Shown: positions 15,641 to 63,306 of the stretch, one piece after another
How positions within the stretch are numbered: the first letter of the stretch is position 1
Layout of the letters: each line of letters opens with the position of its first letter
NCBI RefSeq assembly: GCF_001096185.1
Contig: NZ_CRPU01000003.1
Coordinates: forward strand, 1-64,000
Direction: 5' to 3'
Length of the DNA: 64,000 nucleotides
Source: Streptococcus pneumoniae
GTDB taxonomy: Bacteria; Bacillota; Bacilli; Lactobacillales; Streptococcaceae
Program-made: the position numbers and the translations under genes
Notes under the pieces: model-generated
Told to the model about the DNA's origin: nothing
The model's input: only the letters and a program-made list of their open reading frames with translations
Databases searched by the model: none

Positions 15641-15670
15641 AATAAAAATCCCCAGTCGCTAGACTAGGGA
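15641..15670 (-). terminator. Terminator of the asd-motif RNA
   Basis: A 9-bp stem with one mismatch (15649-15657 with 15662-15670) is followed on the minus strand by TTTTTATTTTT. Confidence 0.85.
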
Positions 15671-15785
15671 CTAAGAGGCATCTCCATGTGATGAGCAGGT
15701 TCACACAACTCATCAAGGTCCGCTCCTGCGTTATGACCTCCTTATGCTCAATAGTAGTCCGAAGACTACCTATCGACTCATCGCA
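15641..15785 (-). ncRNA. asd-motif small RNA
   Basis: The minus strand between a strong promoter and a terminator encodes an RNA of about 135-145 nt with no usable open frame. It is structured: a hairpin around GTAGTCTTCGGACTAC and a terminal hairpin. Position upstream of asd in a streptococcus fits the known asd RNA motif, which is reported to be transcribed on its own. The terminator and the separate asd promoter here support a free small RNA rather than a riboswitch. The match to the motif is from memory, not a covariance search. Confidence 0.7.
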
Positions 15786-15791
15786 TCTACT

Positions 15792-15820
15792 ATTCTACTA
15801 GATAGAGTCACTTTTGTCAA
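15792..15820 (-). promoter_or_regulatory. Promoter of the asd-motif RNA
   Basis: On the minus strand a perfect TTGACA (15815-15820), a 17-base spacer and TAGAAT (15792-15797) predict a start near 15785. Confidence 0.8.
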
Positions 15821-15892
15821 CAGACGAAACTCTTTAGTTTCATTTACACAGATGAATAGAAATATCTTTGAAACATTTGATGCAGACATAAC

Positions 15893-15918
15893 AAAAACCC
15901 TTGTAAATCAAGGGTTTT
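15893..15918 (-). terminator. Terminator after tRNA-Thr
   Basis: Stem AAAACCCTTG / CAAGGGTTTT with a 6-base loop; the minus-strand 3' side is U-rich. Confidence 0.8.
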
Positions 15919-15931
15919 GCTGTCTATATCA

Positions 15932-16004
15932 TGCTAATTGCCGGGATTGAACCGGCGACCTCATCCTTACCATGGATGCGCTCTGCCAACTGAGCTAAAT
16001 CAGC
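15932..16004 (-). tRNA. tRNA-Thr (GGT)
   Basis: A full 73-nt cloverleaf can be folded on the minus strand: acceptor GCTGATT/AATTAGC with one G-U pair, D arm with AGTTGG, anticodon stem CATCC/GGATG with loop ATGGTAA (anticodon GGT, threonine), and a T arm with GGTTCAATCC. CCA is not encoded. It has its own promoter and terminator, so it is a single-tRNA transcription unit. Confidence 0.95.
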
Positions 16005-16014
16005 TTACTTAAAA

Positions 16015-16043
16015 AGTATACTATAATCAGAAAAACTTGTCAA
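16015..16043 (-). promoter_or_regulatory. Promoter of tRNA-Thr
   Basis: Minus strand TTGACA (16038-16043), 17-base spacer, TATACT (16015-16020); predicted start about 5 bases before the mature tRNA. Confidence 0.8.
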
Positions 16044-16067
16044 GTTTCCTTAGAAATTTTCTATAAG

Positions 16068-16095
16068 AAAAAGCCAGGTAAAGGCTACCTAGCTT
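16068..16095 (-). terminator. Terminator of queT
   Basis: Stem AAGCTAGGTA / TACCTGGCTT-like with a short loop, then TTTTTC on the minus strand, just past the queT stop. Confidence 0.75.
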
Positions 16096-16103
16096 GTCCT
16101 GTT

Positions 16104-16613
16104 CTATTTGCTTAAATCGATTCGACGACCAATTTTACCAATAATAATCGCTCCAATAATCAATGAAGCAAATTCACCGATCCCTGTTGTAAACCAAGTA
16201 AGGAAGAATGGTAATTCTGCTACAATATTTAACTCTGCAGCGATAGTAAACATAGAAATTGAAAAGAGGATTGAAAAGAAGAAATGATCTTTTCGAATCA
16301 ATCCGTTAAAGAGGTAATCCTTACTATATTTTGCAAAAAGCCAAACACCTAGACTAAGGAATACTAGGGTTGATCCGCCACCAACAAAGACATCTAGTAG
16401 TCCGAAGCTAAAGAAATTAGCAATCATACAACCGATGGTAACTCCGATGATGTACTTGGGATTGTAAAAAGCCATAAAGTTCATCATTTCTGAAATACGA
16501 AACTGATAAGCACCATAGCTAATGGCATTTAGGGGCGGTGTGACAGTCAAAACGACATAGATAGCAGCGACGATTGCAATATCTGCAACATCACGAATAG
16601 TTAATTTTTTCAT
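16104..16613 (-). CDS. queT: Queuosine precursor transporter QueT
   Basis: The product has 169 residues with about five membrane segments (for example IAIVAAIYVVLTVTPPLNAI near the start and IIGAIIIGKIGRR near the end). It matches the QueT/COG4708 (DUF988) S-components of ECF transporters, thought to import a queuosine precursor such as preQ1. The preQ1-II riboswitch immediately upstream strongly supports this. Transported substrate is inferred from regulation, not measured. Confidence 0.93.
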   Translation of the reverse strand: MKKLTIRDVADIAIVAAIYVVLTVTPPLNAISYGAYQFRISEMMNFMAFYNPKYIIGVTIGCMIANFFSFGLLDVFVGGGSTLVFLSLGVWLFAKYSKDYLFNGLIRKDHFFFSILFSISMFTIAAELNIVAELPFFLTWFTTGIGEFASLIIGAIIIGKIGRRIDLSK

Positions 16614-16615
16614 CT

Positions 16616-16675
16616 TTTCTCCTTTGGCGGGTTGTCCGCGTAAAATATGCTTGGTGAAAGAAGCTAAGCACCAAG
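16616..16675 (-). promoter_or_regulatory. preQ1-II riboswitch
   Basis: On the minus strand CTTGGTGCTTAGC, a UC-rich loop, CACCAAGCATA, an A-rich linker, GCGGACAACCCGCC and AAAGGAGAA fit the streptococcal preQ1-II (COG4708) aptamer, including the H-type pseudoknot with its embedded Shine-Dalgarno. Ligand binding would hide AAGGAG and repress queT translation. This is close to the structurally studied pneumococcal aptamer as I remember it. Confidence 0.93.
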
Positions 16676-16697
16676 GGTTGCTTTATTCAACCTTACT

Positions 16698-16730
16698 AGT
16701 ATAGCACAATAGCCTGCTTTATGCTATACT
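16698..16730. promoter_or_regulatory. Divergent mirrored promoters of queT and the GtrA gene
   Basis: A perfect inverted repeat, AGTATAGCA (16698-16706) and TGCTATACT (16722-16730), contains an extended -10 (TGCTATACT) for each strand. One reads into the riboswitch and queT, the other into the GtrA-family gene. The symmetry could also be a regulator site. Confidence 0.6.
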
Positions 16731-28094: not shown

Positions 28095-28335
28095 ATACTC
28101 AATGAAAATCAAAGAGCAAATTAGGAAGCTAGCCGTAGGTTGCTCAAAACACTGTTTTGAGGTTGTAGATAAGACTGACGAAGTCAGCTCAAAACATGTT
28201 TTTGAGGTTGTAGATGAAACTGACGAAGTCAGCTCAAAACATGTTTTTGAGGTTGTAGATGAAACTGACGAAGTCAGTAACCATACATACGGCAAGGCGA
28301 AGCTGACGTGGTTTGAAGAGATTTTCGAAGAGTAT
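28095..28335 (+). repeat. BOX element, boxA-(boxB)x3-boxC
   Basis: It starts ATACTCAATGAAAATCAAAG and ends GATTTTCGAAGAGTAT, the standard BOX ends. Three 45-bp boxB units are present, the last two identical. Its final base is also the first base of the permease stop codon complement, so the element abuts the end of that gene. Confidence 0.95.
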
Positions 28336-29726
28336 TATTCTTCTATGGTAGAATGCTTATAACCATAAGTGAAGTAAATAATACTTCCTACTAACAACGC
28401 AACTAGGAAAGCAATCCAAGTTTCCACATTATATTGCAACATGAAGGATAAACAAATGATGATCGATAAAATTGGTAACAGAGGTACCAATGGTGTTTTA
28501 AATTCTCCAGCTTTGGGCATCCCTTTTTCTTTCCGTAAGCGAATCAGACCGTAAGCAAGCATGACCAAGTAGGCTAAGGTACAAATATTTAAGAAGGCTG
28601 CGATACTAGCAAGAGGGAACATTCCTGCTGCTACTGCTGAAGCTAGACCGGTCAAGATAGTAGCATTTTTGGGTACCTTGCTTGTTTTGGTCAGTTCCTT
28701 AAAGGCAGCAGGCATCAATCCGTCACGCGCTAAACTGTAAATCATACGCGATAGGGCATAGGTCATCGAAATACAAACTGTAATCAAGGTCAAGATAGCC
28801 ACTAATGACACATAGTTGGCTGCCCAACTAATCCCAATGCTACGAAGTGCAAAGGCAACGGCGTCATCGACATTTAAATGACTATAGTGAACCACACCAG
28901 TCAAAACAAGGGTCACCAAGGCATAGAGAATAGTTACGATAGAAAGCGATAAGACAATCCCTCTAGGAATATTTTTTTGAGGAGTCTTGACTTCATCTAC
29001 AGCCATAGAGATGGATTCAAAGCCCAAAAATCCAAAGAACATCAAGGACGCACCAGCCATAATACCAGTACTAGCGCCATAGATTTGTCCAAAACCATAA
29101 GGAGCAAAATTGCTCCAATTATCAAGTTTAATATTCCAAATTCCTACTAAAATAAAGAGAGATAAAGCCGAGAATTTCAGAATGACCAAAATTGAATTAA
29201 AGCGTAAAGCTGCTTTAGCATTTAGTAAAACAAGCGAAGTCACCAAGACCAAGACAAGAATAGGCAATAAATCAACAAATGTCCCTGCTTGAGGATTAAA
29301 GGTACCATTTAAAGCCTGAGGAAGGGCTATCCCGTATTGAGAGAGCAAGCCTTTAAAATAAGCTGCCCAACCCGAAGCCACACCAGATATGGCTGTCATG
29401 AACTCCATCATGGTTAACCAGCCAGCCAACCAAGCTGGGAATTCTCCTAAAATAACATAGAGATAGCTGTAGGCACCACCTGTAGCGGGTACTCGTGAAG
29501 CAAATTCTGCAAAAAAGAGAGCTGATAATCCCACACACAAGGCAGAAATGACGATTGAAATCACTAGGGCTGGACCCGCTAGAGTTGCGGCTGCAGTACC
29601 TGTTATTGTAAATACACCTGTCCCTACCATGGCTCCGATACCCAGCAAAATCAAATCCCATAACTTCAAATGCCTGTGCATCTCCGTTTTATCTAAACTA
29701 ACATTTTTTGTTCTAAATATATTCAT
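28335..29726 (-). CDS. APC-family amino acid permease
   Basis: The product has 463 residues from ATG 29726 (MNIFRTKNVSLDK), with TTGGAG upstream; a TTG four codons earlier would overlap that site. Twelve membrane segments are expected; the first carries the APC signature LILLGIGAMVGTGVFTITG. The family imports cationic or neutral amino acids; closest type is YfnA/CAT, but the substrate cannot be told. Its last codons (STIEE, stop) lie exactly at the BOX boundary, so the C-terminus may have been set by that insertion. Confidence 0.88.
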   Translation of the reverse strand: MNIFRTKNVSLDKTEMHRHLKLWDLILLGIGAMVGTGVFTITGTAAATLAGPALVISIVISALCVGLSALFFAEFASRVPATGGAYSYLYVILGEFPAWLAGWLTMMEFMTAISGVASGWAAYFKGLLSQYGIALPQALNGTFNPQAGTFVDLLPILVLVLVTSLVLLNAKAALRFNSILVILKFSALSLFILVGIWNIKLDNWSNFAPYGFGQIYGASTGIMAGASLMFFGFLGFESISMAVDEVKTPQKNIPRGIVLSLSIVTILYALVTLVLTGVVHYSHLNVDDAVAFALRSIGISWAANYVSLVAILTLITVCISMTYALSRMIYSLARDGLMPAAFKELTKTSKVPKNATILTGLASAVAAGMFPLASIAAFLNICTLAYLVMLAYGLIRLRKEKGMPKAGEFKTPLVPLLPILSIIICLSFMLQYNVETWIAFLVALLVGSIIYFTYGYKHSTIEE

Positions 29727-29805
29727 CTTTGACTCCAAAATAAAATGATGATTCTATTTTACCATAAATATAGGACATTTGTGAATATTTATAAAATAAT
29801 TTTCT

Positions 29806-29842
29806 AAAAAAATCTGACTACTCTCTTGTAATCAGATTTTTA
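29806..29842 (-). terminator. Terminator after etrx2
   Basis: Stem AAATCTGA / TCAGATTT extended on both sides by A/T runs, between etrx2 and the permease. Confidence 0.75.
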
Positions 29843-29848
29843 TCTATT

Positions 29849-31355: not shown

Positions 31356-34300
31356 TTACTTGAGTTTGGCAAGGATTGCTTTAAGCTCCTCTACTAGTTT
31401 AGCTTCTGTCTCTGCTGAGCCATTTTCCTCTTTCACGAAATCAAGGGTTTCTTGGAGAAGGTTTTGGGCTTTGGCAAGGACTTTTTTATCCGCTTTTTCT
31501 ACATCTAGCTGTCCAAGAACTTTTGTCAATTCCGTGCTTAATTGCTGGATTTCTGACTCTTTCTTACGTCGAACCAACCAGAAGGCAATCACACCTAGAA
31601 GAGCAAGTAGACCGACTACAATCACTCCTGCTGGAACTGAGTTTGTTTCAGTCATCTTATCTGAATCCTTACTATCTTCCGTTCCTTGTTTGGCATCCTT
31701 CTTGTCCTGTGTAGGCTTGCTGTCGCTAGCATTTGCTTTCACATCTTTGAGAGAGTCCAAGGCAGCCTTCACAGACTCTACTGCAGTACGCAGACCTTGC
31801 TCTGTCAAGGCACTATCTTCCAGAGCTTTTTGAGCATCTAGGAGGACAGTTTTGGCTGCATCGATTTTCGCATCAGATACTGTTGCCAAAGCTTTCAATC
31901 GTTGGTCTAACTCTTGAGTCAAGGCACGAAGTTCAGACTTGTCAACTTGCTCTTGAGCTGGAGCTTGCGTGCTCGTTGAGCTAGCTGAAAGATTTGCTGC
32001 CGCTCTAGGAGCTTGAGTCGGAGCTGAACTTGGAGCTGGGACAGGACCTGCAGGTTGACTCGGAGCTGTTGGTTGAGACGGTTGTGGAGCTGGCTCAGAT
32101 GGAGCTGTTGGAGTCTCTGTAGCTCCTTGGTCTGGCTGAGTAGGAGTAGAAGGTTGAGGTTGAGGCGTAGGAAGCGGACGTGGAGATGGTTGTGGATTGA
32201 TGTTCTTGATAGCATCGATTCCTGCCACTTTTGCCTGTTCTACATCCTTATTTGTTAAGCCCTTGTCCACCGCAATCTTAGCATTCTTAGCTTCTTGATC
32301 CACCTGTTGCAATGCTCTTGACTTGTCCTCAGTTGTCAAATCAAAACGATTCGAAATTTCTGTTTTCTTAGCAAATGCAGCAGCTTCAATTGCCTTAATC
32401 GCTTTTGATTTTTCTGTCTCTGTTGGAATTGCTACAGCGTTAATAGCGTTAATACCTTGTTCTTTATTAGTAAGTACCTTATCAGCATCTTCTGATTTAT
32501 TTATTCTATTCTTAGCAGCATCCGCCACGTTTTTATACTGATTCTTGACATTCGCTTTTTCTTCTGTAGTTAAATCGTTATTTGAATCTACATTAGCATT
32601 TTTTAGATGTAAGAGATCTAAGATTTCTGCTATCGCAACCTTCTTAACTTCAGCTAAGTTCCCTTGAGTGTGAACTGCACCTATGTTGTTTACACCAGTC
32701 GTTTTAGCTGTTTCTACTTTATCTGCATCGCTTGCACTTGTAATAGCTGTTTCAGCGTCACTTTTCGCTGTCTCAACTAATTTAATCTTCTCAGTTTTCT
32801 GAGTGTTCGTTAAACTGTTATCGTTGTTGATTTCACCAGTCTCTTGCGTTGCGGCTGTAGCTATAGCTTCTTTTGCCTGACGTTTCACTTCATCTAGGTT
32901 TCCTTGAGTGTGAACTGCACCTATGTTGTTTACACCAGTCGTTTTAGCTGTTTCTACTTTATCTGCATCGCTTGCACTTGTAATAGCTGTTTCAGCGTCA
33001 CTTTTCGCTGTCTCAACTAATTTAATCTTCTCAGTTTTCTGAGTGTTCGTTAAACTGTTATCGTTGTTGATTTCACCAGTCTCTTGCGTTGCGGCTGTAG
33101 CTATAGCTTCTTTTGCCTTAGTTTTCAATTCCTCCAAATTAACTTTCGGCGCTACTGTCACTGCATCACTATAACTTGAAGCTCTTATTCCGGGATTTCC
33201 ATTTGTTTTATCGTCAATTTCAATAACTGTCAATGCAAGAAGTTTTCCTCCTGAAAGAGGTTTTAGATAATCACTTTCTCTAATAGTTACAGTAGTTTTC
33301 TTCGTTACTGGATCAACTGTTCCTGTTGAAACATCAACTTTTGCTGTCAATCTTGTTGGTCTTGGATTACCATTCGTTGCAAATTCATCACCATCATATA
33401 CCGTTTTATCACGATCATTATCAGCAACTAAATATACTTTCATTTTTGCATATGATGGAAGACTTGGAACAGAAGGGACTTCTACATCAATTGTTGGTTT
33501 AGTACCATCCTTACCTTTTAAATACGCATCTACAGTAGGTTCCGTTTGACCTGTCGGAACTTTAATAGTTGGCTTACTAAGAGAACGAAAAGCACCAATT
33601 TGGACTGTTTTGTCTCCTCCTACAGTTTTTACAGTGAAAGTTAAAACAGCATCGTTTTTACCATTAACATCTGTTGTTGCCCTCGCAAAATATGTCGTTG
33701 CATTATTTGGAAAGTTAGACATTTTTTCTACAGTGACTGAGCGTCCTGTGTTGCTTGTTACAGTTACACCTTTAATCTCTCCAGTTTTAGATACAAATTT
33801 AACTATAGTTCTAACTTGATTCGAAAGTATTTCATAAAAATATTTATCAATACTACTGTAATTTCCGTCTGTCCTATTATTCGATATCCCAAACTCTATA
33901 CCAGACGTTTCTTCTGGCGTCGCTCTAAACCCACTACCTTCTGTAAAAGTAGTTCCATTTAAGCTGTGATTATGCCCTGCGATATTGGTACTGTTTGGTT
34001 CTGTATTTTCTGCCTTTAGACCGACAGTTGCTTTTCCATTTGTTGTATCAAGTTTAGGAGCCTTAGGTTCTACATCCTTCTTAACACGTCTTAAGCCAGT
34101 ATTTTTATAACTTACTAATGTTCTAAAGGCTGCATCTACTTCTGTTTGATTTTGCGCCGTTGCAAGGACTTGTCTCGCTTCTTCAGCTTTTGCTTTTAAG
34201 GCTGCTACTGATTCTTCTGTGTAGTTTTCTGTTTTTATGGCATCAATTTCACTTAATAGCGTTTCTAAGTTCTGAGTATTTAGTTGTCTACTAAGTTCAA

Positions 34301-39567: not shown

Positions 39568-39719
39568 ATACTCTTCGAAAATCTCTTCAAACCGCGTCAG
39601 CGTCGCCTTACCGTAGATATATGTAACTGACTTCGTCAGTCTTATCTACAACCTCAAAGCAGCGCTTTGATCAGCCTGCGGCTCGCTTCCTAGTTTGCTC
39701 TTTGATTTTCATTGAGTAT
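39568..39719 (-). repeat. BOX element with one boxB
   Basis: Ends ATACTCTTCGAAAATCTCTT and GATTTTCATTGAGTAT; 152 bp, inverted relative to the copy at 28095. Lies between rocS and the exonuclease gene. Confidence 0.93.
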
Positions 39720-39791
39720 TACTTGAGCAACTATACTATTCACAAACAAAAGAAGCCATCAGGTTAGCACATAACCTAAACAGCTCCTTGA

Positions 39792-46695: not shown

Positions 46696-46890
46696 ATACT
46701 CTTCGAAAATCTCTTCAAACCGCGTCAACGTCGCCTTGCCGTATATATGTTACTGACTTCGTCAGTTCTATCTGCAACCTCAAAACAGTGTTTTGAGCTG
46801 ACTTCGTCAGTTCTATCTACAACCTCAAAGCAGTGCTTTGAGCAACCTGCGGCTAGTTTCCTAGTTTGCTCTTTGATTTTCATTGAGTAT
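46696..46890 (-). repeat. BOX element with two boxB units
   Basis: Standard ends ATACTCTTCGAAAATC and TTTTCATTGAGTAT, 195 bp. Confidence 0.93.
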
Positions 46891-47000
46891 AAGATGAGTA
46901 GGGAGGAAGAGGTAAAAGTTTATGCCCAAACTCTTCACATAAGAACTCTAGCTTACCCATTCTATGGAATCTTGCATTATCCATTAAAACTTCCAGACTC

Positions 47001-47145
47001 ATACTCTTCTAAAATCTATTCAAACCACGTCAACTTCACATTATATATGTTGGTGACCTCATAAGTTTTGTCTGCAACCTCAAAGATGTTCTTTGAGCAG
47101 CCTACAGCTAGCTTCCTAGTTTAATCTTTGCTTTTCACTGAGTAG
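47001..47145 (-). repeat. Degenerate BOX element
   Basis: Recognisable BOX layout with one boxB but many substitutions (for example GTTGGTGACCTCATAAG for the usual GTAACTGACTTCGTCAG). Older than its neighbour at 46696. Confidence 0.75.
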
Positions 47146-47179
47146 CAAGTTAAAAAAATGAGGCTGGTCAAAAAGTCTT

Positions 47180-50841: not shown

Positions 50842-51795
50842 CTATTCTACCATATTTTTCAAGAAATATTGCTGATAAAAGGCTGGTGGATAAAGCTTTT
50901 GCCAATCATTTTGAGGATTTTTTTGGTAATAGGTTTGAAAATACTGATAATAGCTAGCCAAATCTTTCTCAATTTGGCAAAACTCGCCTACTAGTGGTCT
51001 AATTTGTGGATACCATTCTTTTAGCCCATAAGTCAGGAGATTTTCTCCCTTTTGATAGGCTTCTGCTTGTTCTTTCATCCAAAAGGGATTTTGATAGTAC
51101 AGTTGTTGCCGGATATAACGACAGATGTCCTTGTCCTCAGAAACTGTAAAATGAGATAGTTTTTGTTTCTTATAGGGAAAACGTAATATCTCCAGTAGAC
51201 TATCTTGTCCATAGGGAAATTCCTTGATTTGATAATGGAGTTTGCCTCGAAGATCCTGATGTATGAGATATTTAAGCCTTAAAAGCTGTTTTTCCTTATC
51301 TACTTCCCAAACATAAAAGCCCATATTTTGACTGAAATAAAGAAAACCTTCTTGCAGACGAGTCAAACGATCCTTGATCCAAAGTTTTTCTCCAAGCAAC
51401 CACAGTACTTGGTAACCCTCACTACGATAACCCTCACTACGCTCTTTAAGAACTTTTTGTGGCAAGGGACTACATTGAACCTCTAAAGCTAGATTGCCAT
51501 TTACAAATACATCCGCAATCTGTTTAAGCTCTGGAAGGGGGTATTCTAATTGAACCTCTGCCTCTTTTTTCAACCAGTGATAGAGGACTTCCTTATTTGC
51601 CAAGTGTTCTGGACTTTCATTTTCAAAGGAGTAATCACAGTCTTTTAAGGATTTATGGGCAAAATGGGTTCGGACACTTGATCCTTGACGCAAACGGAGC
51701 TGACCTCCACAAGCTGGGCAGGTGTAGGCTTGCTTCTCAAGCTTATCCTCTAACACATTTACCAATTTGCCCCTAGCATCTCTCGCAACAAACAT
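50842..51795 (-). CDS. coiA: Competence protein CoiA
   Basis: The product has 317 residues. Late competence protein promoting recombination of incoming DNA. The N-terminal Cys pair YTCPACGGQLRLRQG (about 28-42), RTHFAHKSLKDCDY and the nuclease-like VFVNGNLALEVQCSPLP (about 110-126, PD-(D/E)XK-type Glu and Gln) are clear. AAAGGAGGAAAATC precedes the ATG, and a cin-box lies about 22 bases upstream. The box has one mismatch; a perfect copy lies at 52641. Confidence 0.95.
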   Translation of the reverse strand: MFVARDARGKLVNVLEDKLEKQAYTCPACGGQLRLRQGSSVRTHFAHKSLKDCDYSFENESPEHLANKEVLYHWLKKEAEVQLEYPLPELKQIADVFVNGNLALEVQCSPLPQKVLKERSEGYRSEGYQVLWLLGEKLWIKDRLTRLQEGFLYFSQNMGFYVWEVDKEKQLLRLKYLIHQDLRGKLHYQIKEFPYGQDSLLEILRFPYKKQKLSHFTVSEDKDICRYIRQQLYYQNPFWMKEQAEAYQKGENLLTYGLKEWYPQIRPLVGEFCQIEKDLASYYQYFQTYYQKNPQNDWQKLYPPAFYQQYFLKNMVE

Positions 51796-51816: not shown

Positions 51817-51824
51817 TATTCGAA
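51817..51824 (-). promoter_or_regulatory. cin-box (ComX site) of coiA
   Basis: TTCGAATA on the minus strand, one mismatch to the pneumococcal late-competence consensus TACGAATA, correctly placed for coiA. Confidence 0.8.
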
Positions 51825-51856
51825 AAAAAGAAAAAAGATCAGGAAATTTCCTAATC
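51823..51856 (-). terminator. Terminator after hicB
   Basis: Ten-base arms GATTAGGAAA / TTTCCTGATC with one G-U pair, then TTTTTTCTTTTTTT on the minus strand. Confidence 0.85.
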
Positions 51857-51873
51857 TTCATCACTCTATAATT

Positions 51874-52251
51874 TTAGAGTTGCAAGCGACTTTCAAGAGC
51901 TTGTGTCAACACTTCAGAATAGTTCACTTTCTCACGATCTGCAAGTCTGACTAGCCACTCTGGAACCGTAACATTTTTTCGAATCGCTTTATTATTCTTT
52001 ACGAAAGGCAAGGGATTGACCTGAATCAAAGTCACAAATCCATCAGGAGCTTTCAACTCAGCAATGTCACTAGGAGTAGGCAGAGCCAGTCCTTCATCAA
52101 TATAAGAAGCTAAAACACTCTCAAGCATTTCCCGAGCATTTTTCATTGCAAGTTCAATCGTTGCTCCCTCTGTCCCACCTCCAAACTCCGGAAATTCAAT
52201 CCAGTATCCAGTACCTTCTTTATGAAAAATAGCAGGATAAGATTTTAGCAT
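51874..52251 (-). CDS. hicB: HicB-family antitoxin
   Basis: The product has 125 residues from ATG 52251 (MLKSYPAIFHKEGTGYWIEF), preceded by GGAGGTG. The N-terminal half is the partial RNase H-like HicB fold (IEFPEFGGGTEGATIELAMK); the C-terminal half is a DNA-binding segment (IRKNVTVPEWLVRLADREK, then NYSEVLTQALESRL). It normally neutralises HicA and autoregulates. Here hicA is broken, so the antitoxin is an orphan. Frame intact. Confidence 0.92.
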   Translation of the reverse strand: MLKSYPAIFHKEGTGYWIEFPEFGGGTEGATIELAMKNAREMLESVLASYIDEGLALPTPSDIAELKAPDGFVTLIQVNPLPFVKNNKAIRKNVTVPEWLVRLADREKVNYSEVLTQALESRLQL

Positions 52252-52278: not shown

Positions 52279-52573
52279 CTACAATCCCAAATCTTTTAAT
52301 ATTTTTCTCTCTAAACCTTTTCCTAGATCATCATTACCGTGAACTGGAATAGTGACAAGATAGGGAACCCCTTCTTTCTTAAAATGATGATGACTTCCTC
52401 TCTTACGTACTTCAATCCATCCATTTGCAAGAGCTAATACTCTTCGAAAATCAAATTCAAACCACGTCAGCTTCTCCTTGCCGTACTCAAGTACAGCCTG
52501 CGGCCAGCTTCCTAGTTTGCTCTTTGATTTTCATTGAGTATAATTTTACCATTTCCTTACCTGTGATTGGCAT
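52279..52573 (-). pseudogene. hicA: hicA mRNA-interferase toxin split by a BOX element
   Basis: The N-terminus MPITGKEMVKL starts at ATG 52573; the frame then enters the BOX element and stops within it. Beyond the element the same gene resumes with ALANGWIEVRKRGSHHHF (conserved catalytic His in GSHHHF) and ends PVHGNDDLGKGLERKIL, then KDLGL and TAG. Removing the BOX and one copy of TAA restores a continuous frame of about 62 residues. The toxin is therefore inactive, only 27 bases before hicB. Confidence 0.93.
52437..52542 (-). repeat. BOX element (boxA-boxC) inside hicA
   Basis: 106 bp with standard ends TACTCTTCGAAAATC and GATTTTCATTGAGTA, no boxB. It is flanked by TAA on both sides, a probable target duplication, and interrupts hicA. 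Confidence 0.93.
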
Positions 52574-52640: not shown

Positions 52641-52648
52641 TATTCGTA
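52641..52648 (-). promoter_or_regulatory. Perfect cin-box upstream of the hicAB remnant
   Basis: TACGAATA on the minus strand, exact ComX consensus, about 68 bases before the hicA ATG. Confidence 0.65.
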
Positions 52649-52680
52649 AAAAAGAAAAAAGATCAGGAAATTTCCTAATC
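52647..52680 (-). terminator. Terminator after tehB
   Basis: Same hairpin as at 51823, with T-run, a few bases past the tehB stop. Confidence 0.85.
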
Positions 52681-52691
52681 TTCATTCTTAT

Positions 52692-53552
52692 TTACTTTAT
52701 TTTCTTAGCTAGCATGGTCGCAAAGCGTAGTTGAATGCGATTGCCATTCTCATCGCGACGGTGCAAATGGCCTGGATTTTCATTGTACTTGACCAACTCC
52801 CAGTCCTTGTAATAGTCTGCCAATTCCCCTTCTTTAAAGGTAAATGGGAAGTTCACTGAGCAAGGATAATCCTCCGTGTCCATGGCACAGACGATAAGAT
52901 TATAGCCACCAGCACTGGTTTTCTCCTGCATATTTTTGATAATTTCAGGAATGCGGTCTGCTTGTAGAAACATGAGAACAACAGTTGATACGATAAAATC
53001 ATATTCTTGCCCAATGCTAGCTGAATTGATATCGTAAAGACCAACAGGCATGTCCAAATCTTCCTGCTCGACAATGCTTTGCAAGATTTCAAGGGCTAGT
53101 TCATTTTGATCTACAGCCGTCACATCAAAACCTTGCAGGGCTAAAAAGAGAGAATTACGGCCTTGACCACAGCCCAAATCCAAGGCTTTTCCTGGTTTTA
53201 CTGTCTGCATAGCCTCTAAGACCTCTGAATGAACCGGATTGGTATTATATTTTTTAGGGAAATAATCCTCAGGTTTACAATAAAATTCCAAATACCATTC
53301 CACATCGTCTGTGGTAGCTTCCACTCGGTGCCAAGCTTGAGGTTGTACCATGGGATTGTCAGCTCCTGCTTCAAAGAGGTGCTCAGCTAAAACCTCACCA
53401 TCCTCTGTCAATTCAATAAACTTGAGAGTTCCTTTTAAAACAGTAATCTTGCCCCAAGTTCCAACCTTGGTATTGTGTTTCTGCTGAACAGCCTCTGGCA
53501 TGGTTTCTTTAGTCCACAAAGGCATACGTTTATAGGCAACTAATTTTTCCAT
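52692..53552 (-). CDS. tehB: TehB-like SAM-dependent methyltransferase
   Basis: The product has 286 residues from ATG 53552, with AGAGGA upstream. An N-terminal cupin-like domain (about 1-85, VEWYLEFYCKPEDYFPKKY at its end) precedes a class I methyltransferase with ALDLGCGQGRNSLFLALQG (about 118-136) and FIVSTVVLMFL. TehB proteins methylate tellurite or other chalcogen compounds; the physiological substrate in streptococci is unknown. Confidence 0.9.
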   Translation of the reverse strand: MEKLVAYKRMPLWTKETMPEAVQQKHNTKVGTWGKITVLKGTLKFIELTEDGEVLAEHLFEAGADNPMVQPQAWHRVEATTDDVEWYLEFYCKPEDYFPKKYNTNPVHSEVLEAMQTVKPGKALDLGCGQGRNSLFLALQGFDVTAVDQNELALEILQSIVEQEDLDMPVGLYDINSASIGQEYDFIVSTVVLMFLQADRIPEIIKNMQEKTSAGGYNLIVCAMDTEDYPCSVNFPFTFKEGELADYYKDWELVKYNENPGHLHRRDENGNRIQLRFATMLAKKIK

Positions 53553-53567
53553 TTTCAATTCCTCTTT

Positions 53568-63123: not shown

Positions 63124-63273
63124 ATACTCAATGAAAATCAAAGAGCAAACTAGGAAGCTAGCCGCAGGCTGCTCAAAGCACTGCTTTGAGGTTGTAAATA
63201 AGACTGACAAAGTCAGTCACATATATAATCCAAGGCGACGTTGACGTGGTTTGAAGAGATTTTTGAAGAGTAT
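63124..63273 (+). repeat. BOX element with one boxB
   Basis: Starts ATACTCAATGAAAATCAAAG and ends GATTTTTGAAGAGTAT, 150 bp, between convergent pavA and lytB. Confidence 0.93.
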
Positions 63274-63306
63274 TACTACTTACTCAAATCATATCCAATA
63301 ATAGGA

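What the first reader, a model, noticed from the sequence alone, without database searches (positions are those of the whole stretch)
52279..52573. hicA toxin disrupted by a BOX element, leaving orphan hicB
The hicA gene is split cleanly after codon 11. Removing the BOX plus one TAA restores a full frame, so this is a dated insertion, not general decay. It gives direct evidence of BOX mobility with a TAA (or TA) target duplication, and leaves an intact antitoxin with DNA-binding domain without toxin.
Basis: partly seen in the sequence, partly recalled or inferred. Interest (0 to 1): 0.78.

Follow-up and report, generated by a model that had tools for sequence, protein, structure and literature searches.

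The report
BOX repeat breaks hicA, hicB survives
A short mobile repeat jumped into a bacterial toxin gene of a Streptococcus and broke it while leaving the matching antidote gene whole; close relatives still carry the unbroken gene, and the broken form seems to have been passed between species, which is a clear but fairly ordinary case of a known kind of event.

Summary
The hicA frame (52279-52573, minus strand) is cut after codon 11 by a 103-bp A1C1 BOX element (52438-52540) with TTA (coding strand) on both sides; net gain 106 nt. The duplication is not TA but a 3-bp TNA: flanking triplets are identical in 34 of 38 scorable BOX copies of this genome. All four filled alleles share two BOX variants absent from 22 other copies of this genome, pointing to one insertion. 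Yet no flanking base separates the 4 filled from 7 empty alleles, and the filled ones do not group on (weak) flank trees, so the broken allele most likely moved between species by recombination. 'Dated' is too strong. hicB is intact. BOX mobility, duplications and gene disruption were already in print (PMC3049150), so this is a well-documented member of a known kind. Extras: hicAB sits between duplicated terminator/cin-box-like units beside coiA; a second, distant, intact hicBA pair lies elsewhere in the genome.

The parts
52541..52573 (-). 5' remnant of hicA, codons 1-11 (MPITGKEMVKL); its last codon TTA (52541-52543) is one copy of the duplicated target
52438..52540 (-). A1C1 BOX element, 103 bp, TACTC...GAGTA, boxA end towards the hicA start
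52435..52437 (-). second copy of the TTA target duplication (TAA on + strand)
52279..52434 (-). 3' remnant of hicA, 51 codons plus stop, undamaged; no ATG/GTG/TTG in its frame between the last upstream stop and the junction
   Evidence: PF07927 positions 10-58 of 58
51874..52251 (-). hicB, intact, 125 aa, PF15919
52597..52625 (-). sigma-70-type promoter TTGACA-17-TATAAT (12 of 12), with an imperfect palindrome TACGCATTATAAGTA over the spacer, the likely HicB operator (inferred)
   Evidence: promoters of relatives
52641..52698 (-). upstream copy of a 58-nt direct repeat: terminator-like hairpin (52658-52683) and TACGAATA, a ComX cin-box by recall
51817..51874 (-). downstream copy of the same repeat, between hicB and coiA: terminator-like hairpin (51834-51859) and TTCGAATA
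50842..51795 (-). coiA (competence protein CoiA), downstream neighbour
52692..53558 (-). tehB-like methyltransferase, upstream neighbour

Best explanation
A 103-bp BOX element, which behaves as a non-autonomous transposable element that duplicates a TNA triplet, inserted once into codon 11 of a hicA gene in a mitis-group Streptococcus. The insert shifts the frame (106 nt gained) and brings a stop, so translation ends after 28 codons and the HicA fold cannot be made. The promoter, the predicted operator and hicB are untouched, so the operon should now yield HicB alone, a self-repressing antitoxin without its toxin. The broken allele then moved between species-level lineages by homologous recombination. 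Shown: insertion, empty sites, TNA duplication, intact hicB, shared private BOX variants, filled alleles unclustered by their flanks. Inferred: loss of toxin activity, transcription and self-repression of hicB, recombination as the carrier, the mobilising transposase.
For: Exact junctions and 106-nt net gain against natural intact alleles. Filled 4, empty 9 of 13 scorable genomes; one more breaks at a contig end. Flanking triplets are identical in 34 of 38 BOX copies (hicA's own included); among the 36 with TNA on both sides the middle base agrees in 34, against a mean of 13.3 and a maximum of 25 in 100,000 permutations. One origin: at BOX positions 36 and 66 all four hicA copies carry a base found in 0 of 22 other A1C1 copies of this genome; the four copies differ from each other by 0-3 of 103 bases. 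Recombination: 0 sites in about 2.3 kb of flank are fixed in the 4 filled and absent from 7 empty alleles; one clade of filled alleles is rejected upstream (p-AU 0.006) and borderline downstream (0.066). Five variants are shared by three filled alleles and no empty one; two of them lie within 30 nt of the BOX, one on each side. The window's HicB is 94-99% identical to the seven coiA-linked HicB proteins aligned with it.
Against: Flank trees have no well-supported forks, so the history of spread is read from weak trees; in the coiA tree two filled alleles even pair (78/91). Of the five three-of-four variants, three lie far from the BOX. The private BOX variants were checked against copies of one genome only. 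Not every BOX fits TNA: 4 of 38 copies mismatch, and by my reading of the flanks printed three of the five other BOX elements of the window mismatch. No transposase with BOX-like ends was found in 32 loci. The 3' half of hicA is strongly conserved among filled alleles (pN/pS 0.07), which clonal descent of a dead gene would not give; a young, recombining insertion explains it, but so would residual function. Nothing here measures transcription or toxicity.
Confidence: 0.85

Rival explanations
1. Repeated independent insertion: the same TTA in hicA is a hot spot and BOX entered it separately in several lineages.
For: Filled alleles do not group on flank trees.
Against: Same base, same orientation, and two BOX variants shared by 4 of 4 hicA copies and by 0 of 22 other copies of this genome. 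Two variants within 30 nt of the BOX are each shared by three of the four filled alleles and by 0 of 7 empty ones.
Confidence: 0.07
2. Precise excision: the filled form is old in this group and the empty alleles are restored by loss of the BOX and one triplet.
For: Filled and empty alleles are interleaved.
Against: Five more distant hicA genes (about 75% DNA identity; L192-L196) are also uninterrupted at this place, so empty is probably ancestral; the two variants next to the BOX occur in 0 of 7 empty alleles.
Confidence: 0.05
3. The 3' half is still translated as a BOX-fused HicA with a new N-terminus, so toxin or a toxin-like RNA-binding fragment persists.
For: In the frame of the 3' half the window's BOX is open for the last 31 codons up to the junction; the 3' half has no stop in 4 of 4 filled alleles and low pN/pS; BOX-encoded reading frames are on record (PMC3049150, section 9).
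Against: No ATG, GTG or TTG in that frame in the window (codons read by hand). One filled allele has lost a His of the conserved SHHHF motif (L050). The conservation is equally explained by recombination.
Confidence: 0.05
4. Ordinary decay of a TA locus in which the BOX is incidental.
For: Orphan antitoxins, many of them remnants of degraded systems, are reported (PMC7354431, passages).
Against: Both halves are otherwise undamaged and the insert alone accounts for the break in all 4 filled alleles.
Confidence: 0.03

Closest known systems
BOX elements of Streptococcus pneumoniae (Martin 1992 and Knutsen 2006, known to me only as references; Croucher 2011, PMC3049150, abstract, sections 7 and 9 and passages seen)
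   Same: A/C modular repeat, terminal inverted repeats, tight RNA fold, high copy number, target duplication, gene disruption by BOX (a DNA alkylation repair gene is the printed example)
   Different: Here the empty site is shown in nine relatives, the duplication is resolved as TNA, and the disrupted gene is a TA toxin. Knutsen 2006 is not held and I did not try Martin 1992, so whether TNA is already in print is not known to me
BOX upstream of pneumococcal yefM-yoeB (Chan 2011, as told in passages of PMC4803016 and PMC6162744)
   Same: A BOX element inside a pneumococcal toxin-antitoxin locus
   Different: There the BOX adds a promoter in front of an intact operon; here it breaks the toxin gene
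S. pneumoniae TIGR4 HicBA (PDB 5yrz; Kim 2018, not held)
   Same: HicA/HicB family
   Different: The window's HicB matches 5yrz HicB only weakly (E 2.6e-11). The pair elsewhere in this genome resembles 5yrz by eye and is 39% identical to the window's HicB over residues 1-70 and 25% over 70-121
RUP insertions in pneumococcal genes (PMC3049150, section 8 passage)
   Same: Small non-autonomous repeat splitting a gene, with intact alleles in relatives
   Different: Different repeat family

Membership tests
BOX element (A1C1) | boxA and boxC modules in order, high copy number in the genome | tested here: met
   40 listed matches in the genome; 22 other copies of 102-103 bp with the same ends; five other BOX elements in the window, some with B modules
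BOX element (A1C1) | terminal inverted repeats | tested here: met
   TACTC/GAGTA perfect; 19-nt arms 84% complementary
BOX element (A1C1) | target site duplication on insertion, with an empty site | tested here: met
BOX element (A1C1) | stable stem-loop as RNA with ends paired | tested here: met
HicAB toxin-antitoxin | HicA toxin domain (PF07927) | tested here: met
   intact relative L035 hits PF07927 over all 58 positions; the window's 3' part hits positions 10-58
HicAB toxin-antitoxin | uninterrupted hicA reading frame in this genome | tested here: not met
   broken by the BOX; a former, not a working, hicAB pair
HicAB toxin-antitoxin | HicB antitoxin directly downstream | tested here: met
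   PF15919, 125 aa, 27 nt after hicA
HicAB toxin-antitoxin | DNA-binding C-terminal domain in HicB | tested here: inconclusive
   C-terminal half aligns with HicB chains 5yrz and 9svk; Pfam gave no separate DNA-binding family; no structure could be predicted
HicAB toxin-antitoxin | toxicity of HicA and neutralisation by HicB | not testable with these tools
   needs an experiment
TNA-duplicating insertion sequences (IS5 family, IS1031-like, by recall) as mobilisers | TNA duplication | tested here: met
   34 of 38 copies
TNA-duplicating insertion sequences (IS5 family, IS1031-like, by recall) as mobilisers | a transposase gene between ends like those of BOX | tested here: inconclusive
   none in 32 loci (30 with PF01609, 2 with PF13340): only two ends at 2 or fewer mismatches of 15, in different loci. 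These were 32 of many more matches; multi-copy IS may be missing from the 24-contig draft, and ISSpn2 was not identified

The most novel reading that the evidence does not exclude
The toxin-dead, antitoxin-alive allele is favoured and travels by transformation: HicB kept without HicA protects recipients that take up DNA carrying intact hicAB from related streptococci, and the module, lying beside coiA behind a copy of its cin-box-like motif, may be switched on in competence. The BOX would then have made an anti-addiction allele that crosses species.
Probability: 0.1. Interest if true: 0.62.

Novelty: new member of a known kind. Interest (0 to 1): 0.36.

Why it matters
PMC3049150 left open whether BOX copies shared by S. 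mitis and S. [quoted passage not shown] This locus is a clean marker for that question: one insertion, identifiable by private bases, sits on unclustered flanks in four species-level genomes, with the empty site in nine others. It also resolves the duplication as TNA, which narrows the kind of transposase to look for, and gives a natural set of toxin-dead and toxin-intact alleles of one TA locus beside a competence gene.

Tried and rejected
BOX-encoded restart or fusion of HicA: no ATG, GTG or TTG in frame in the window (with the sequence); kept as a low-probability rival. Mobilising transposase: PF01609 and PF13359 in the own genome, PF01609 and PF13340 in 41 genomes; BOX-like ends were looked for in 32 of the loci. 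At up to 4 mismatches of 15 weak hits are everywhere, some on both sides of a transposase; at 2 or fewer there are two, in different loci (L126, L151). TA duplication: rejected. Excision and repeated insertion: disfavoured. Literature: the hicA disruption was looked for, and the TNA duplication. I saw listings and, for PMC3049150, PMC4803016, PMC11709252, PMC6162744, PMC6722419, PMC2828477, PMC10969869, PMC11594946, PMC6560143, PMC6212727 and PMC7354431, passages (of PMC3049150 also the abstract and sections 7 and 9); none of what I saw reports either. The other listed papers were not opened. Kim 2018, Chan 2012 and Knutsen 2006 are not held.

Sample notes: one search dropped 2 of 40 copies (L075, L076) whose left end was not recognised. 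One search used 22 of the 39 other copies (95-110 bp). One search took 20 BOX copies from other genomes, all matching the query from position 6 or earlier, so the left TTA is selected; the right triplet is not, and it matched in 20 of 20, but several are the same locus in different genomes (five share one flank). One search compared 4 filled with 5 empty alleles and sums over pairs that are not independent. Searches used 5 empty alleles and one search used 7 of the 9; the two left out are the most divergent (L041, L042). One search also printed four columns as fixed in filled alleles: gap columns at the edge of the insert, not flank differences. In one search the pattern left L198 unclassified and did not match L197. 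The 23 coiA loci come from a draw of 197 genomes, whereas searched 284.

Full report
What is there. The minus strand between 52573 and 52279 holds a hicA frame broken in one place. Codons 1-11 read MPITGKEMVKL; then 103 bp of repeat follow, TACTC...GAGTA, + strand 52438-52540; then 51 codons and a stop. TTA on the coding strand stands on both sides of the repeat. Net gain is 106 nt, which shifts the frame; read from the hicA start, a stop comes after 28 codons. hicB, 125 aa, follows 27 nt after hicA and is intact. The intact homologue in L035 is a full PF07927 HicA, and the window's HicB is a PF15919 HicB.

The repeat is a BOX. Forty listed places in the genome match it at 76-100%, and it has the A and C ends of the other BOX copies in the window. 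Its ends pair and its RNA folds with z -6.4. BOX elements as A/B/C modular repeats with terminal inverted repeats, target duplications and occasional gene disruption are described in PMC3049150 (abstract, sections 7 and 9, and passages seen).

The empty site. HicB and hicA-hicB searches in one genome per species of the genus (197 genomes, 284) and in named genomes found hicAB next to coiA in 13 scorable genomes. Four are filled: the window's, L050, L037, L040. Nine are empty at the same base: L033, L034, L035, L038, L039, L041, L042, L180, L181 (coiA linkage). One more, L036, ends at a contig edge. I paired unnamed and named copies of the same genome by contig coordinates. Five more distant hicA genes (L192-L196) are also uninterrupted there, so empty is probably the ancestral state.

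The duplication is TNA. In 38 of 40 copies from this genome both ends could be placed; the triplets outside the element are identical in 34 (16 TTA, 13 TAA, 3 TGA, 2 TCA). In the 36 copies with TNA on both sides the middle base agrees in 34; permutations gave a mean of 13.3 and at most 25. Four- and five-base matches are 0 of 38. Twenty copies from other genomes all have matching TTA, but they were selected for the left TTA and several are the same locus. Against this, by my reading of the flanks printed, only two of the five other BOX elements of the window match (39568, 46696); those at 28095, 47001 and 63124 do not.

One insertion, many flanks. The four hicA BOX copies differ by 0-3 of 103 bases. 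At positions 36 and 66 all four have a base seen in 0 of 22 other A1C1 copies of this genome. So they most likely descend from one insertion. Yet over about 2.3 kb of flank no base is fixed in the four filled and absent from 7 empty alleles; holding the filled alleles as one clade is rejected upstream (p-AU 0.006) and borderline downstream (0.066). Five variants are shared by three filled alleles and no empty one: two within 30 nt of the BOX, one on each side, and three farther away. This is what a single insertion passed around by short-tract recombination could leave. The trees themselves are weakly supported, and in the coiA tree two filled alleles pair weakly.

Selection. Summed over pairs, pN/pS of the hicA 3' half is 0.07 among the 4 filled and 0.14 among 5 empty alleles; for hicB 0.21 and 0.15. 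A dead gene of long clonal standing would not look so constrained; a young and recombining insertion would. The pairs are not independent and the genes are short, so this does not show that hicB is under selection in filled lineages. One filled allele (L050) has SHYHF in place of SHHHF.

How it most likely works. The promoter (TTGACA-17-TATAAT) with its palindrome TACGCATTATAAGTA is upstream of the break, so hicB should still be transcribed through the BOX hairpin. HicB without HicA would be a self-repressing remnant, or at most a shield against incoming hicAB alleles. Shown: the sequence facts above. Inferred: transcription, repression and loss of toxicity.

Surroundings. hicAB lies between two copies of a 58-nt direct repeat (88%) that holds a terminator-like hairpin and TACGAATA or TTCGAATA, which I take from recall for a ComX cin-box. 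Of 23 loci with CoiA about 90% identical or more, in a draw of 197 genomes, 4 carry hicB, 14 have tehB next to coiA with exactly one copy of the unit and no hicB, and 5 have other DNA upstream of coiA. So the module itself looks like an insertion that left, or used, a duplicated unit. By the strict pattern two copies are seen in 4 of 9 hicAB-bearing loci, one in 4 and none in 1; the pattern misses variant copies. coiA is among the ComX-regulated genes of D39V, with values of 8.2 and 7.4 in the table passage seen (PMC6560143); hicB does not occur in that text. A second hicBA pair, like 5yrz by eye, is intact elsewhere in the genome.

Verdict. The dating claim and the TA option do not. The event is a known kind; what is added is the set of empty sites, the TNA duplication, the likely single origin and the sign of exchange between species.

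Noticed in passing
window 51817-51874 and 52641-52698: 58-nt direct repeat (88%) with terminator-like hairpin and cin-box-like motif flanks hicAB; 14 of 23 close coiA loci have one copy and no hicAB, so hicAB looks like an inserted module beside coiA.
   Followed up: partly
L157 516-1208 (G000:C2:75300-77200): An intact second hicA-hicB pair, like 5yrz by eye; its HicB is 39% identical to the window's over residues 1-70 and 25% over 70-121.
   Followed up: partly
G131, G137 and others: BOX matches at E <= 0.001 in 153 of 197 Streptococcus genomes, with 98% identity even in G131 and G137, whose CoiA is only 53-55% identical; wider than the twelve other species surveyed in PMC3049150 suggested.
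   Followed up: no
window 28095-28337, 39568-39727, 46696-46898, 47001-47153, 63124-63275: Five further BOX elements in the window, two of them about 100 bp apart; three of the five lack a matching TNA pair, as if ends had been exchanged or had decayed.
   Followed up: partly
window 32644-33123: Two tandem 240-nt units, 97% identical.
   Followed up: no
window 15644-16708 and 29796-29845: Rfam matches: MarS sRNA (asd), tRNA, preQ1-II riboswitch and SpF36 sRNA.
   Followed up: no
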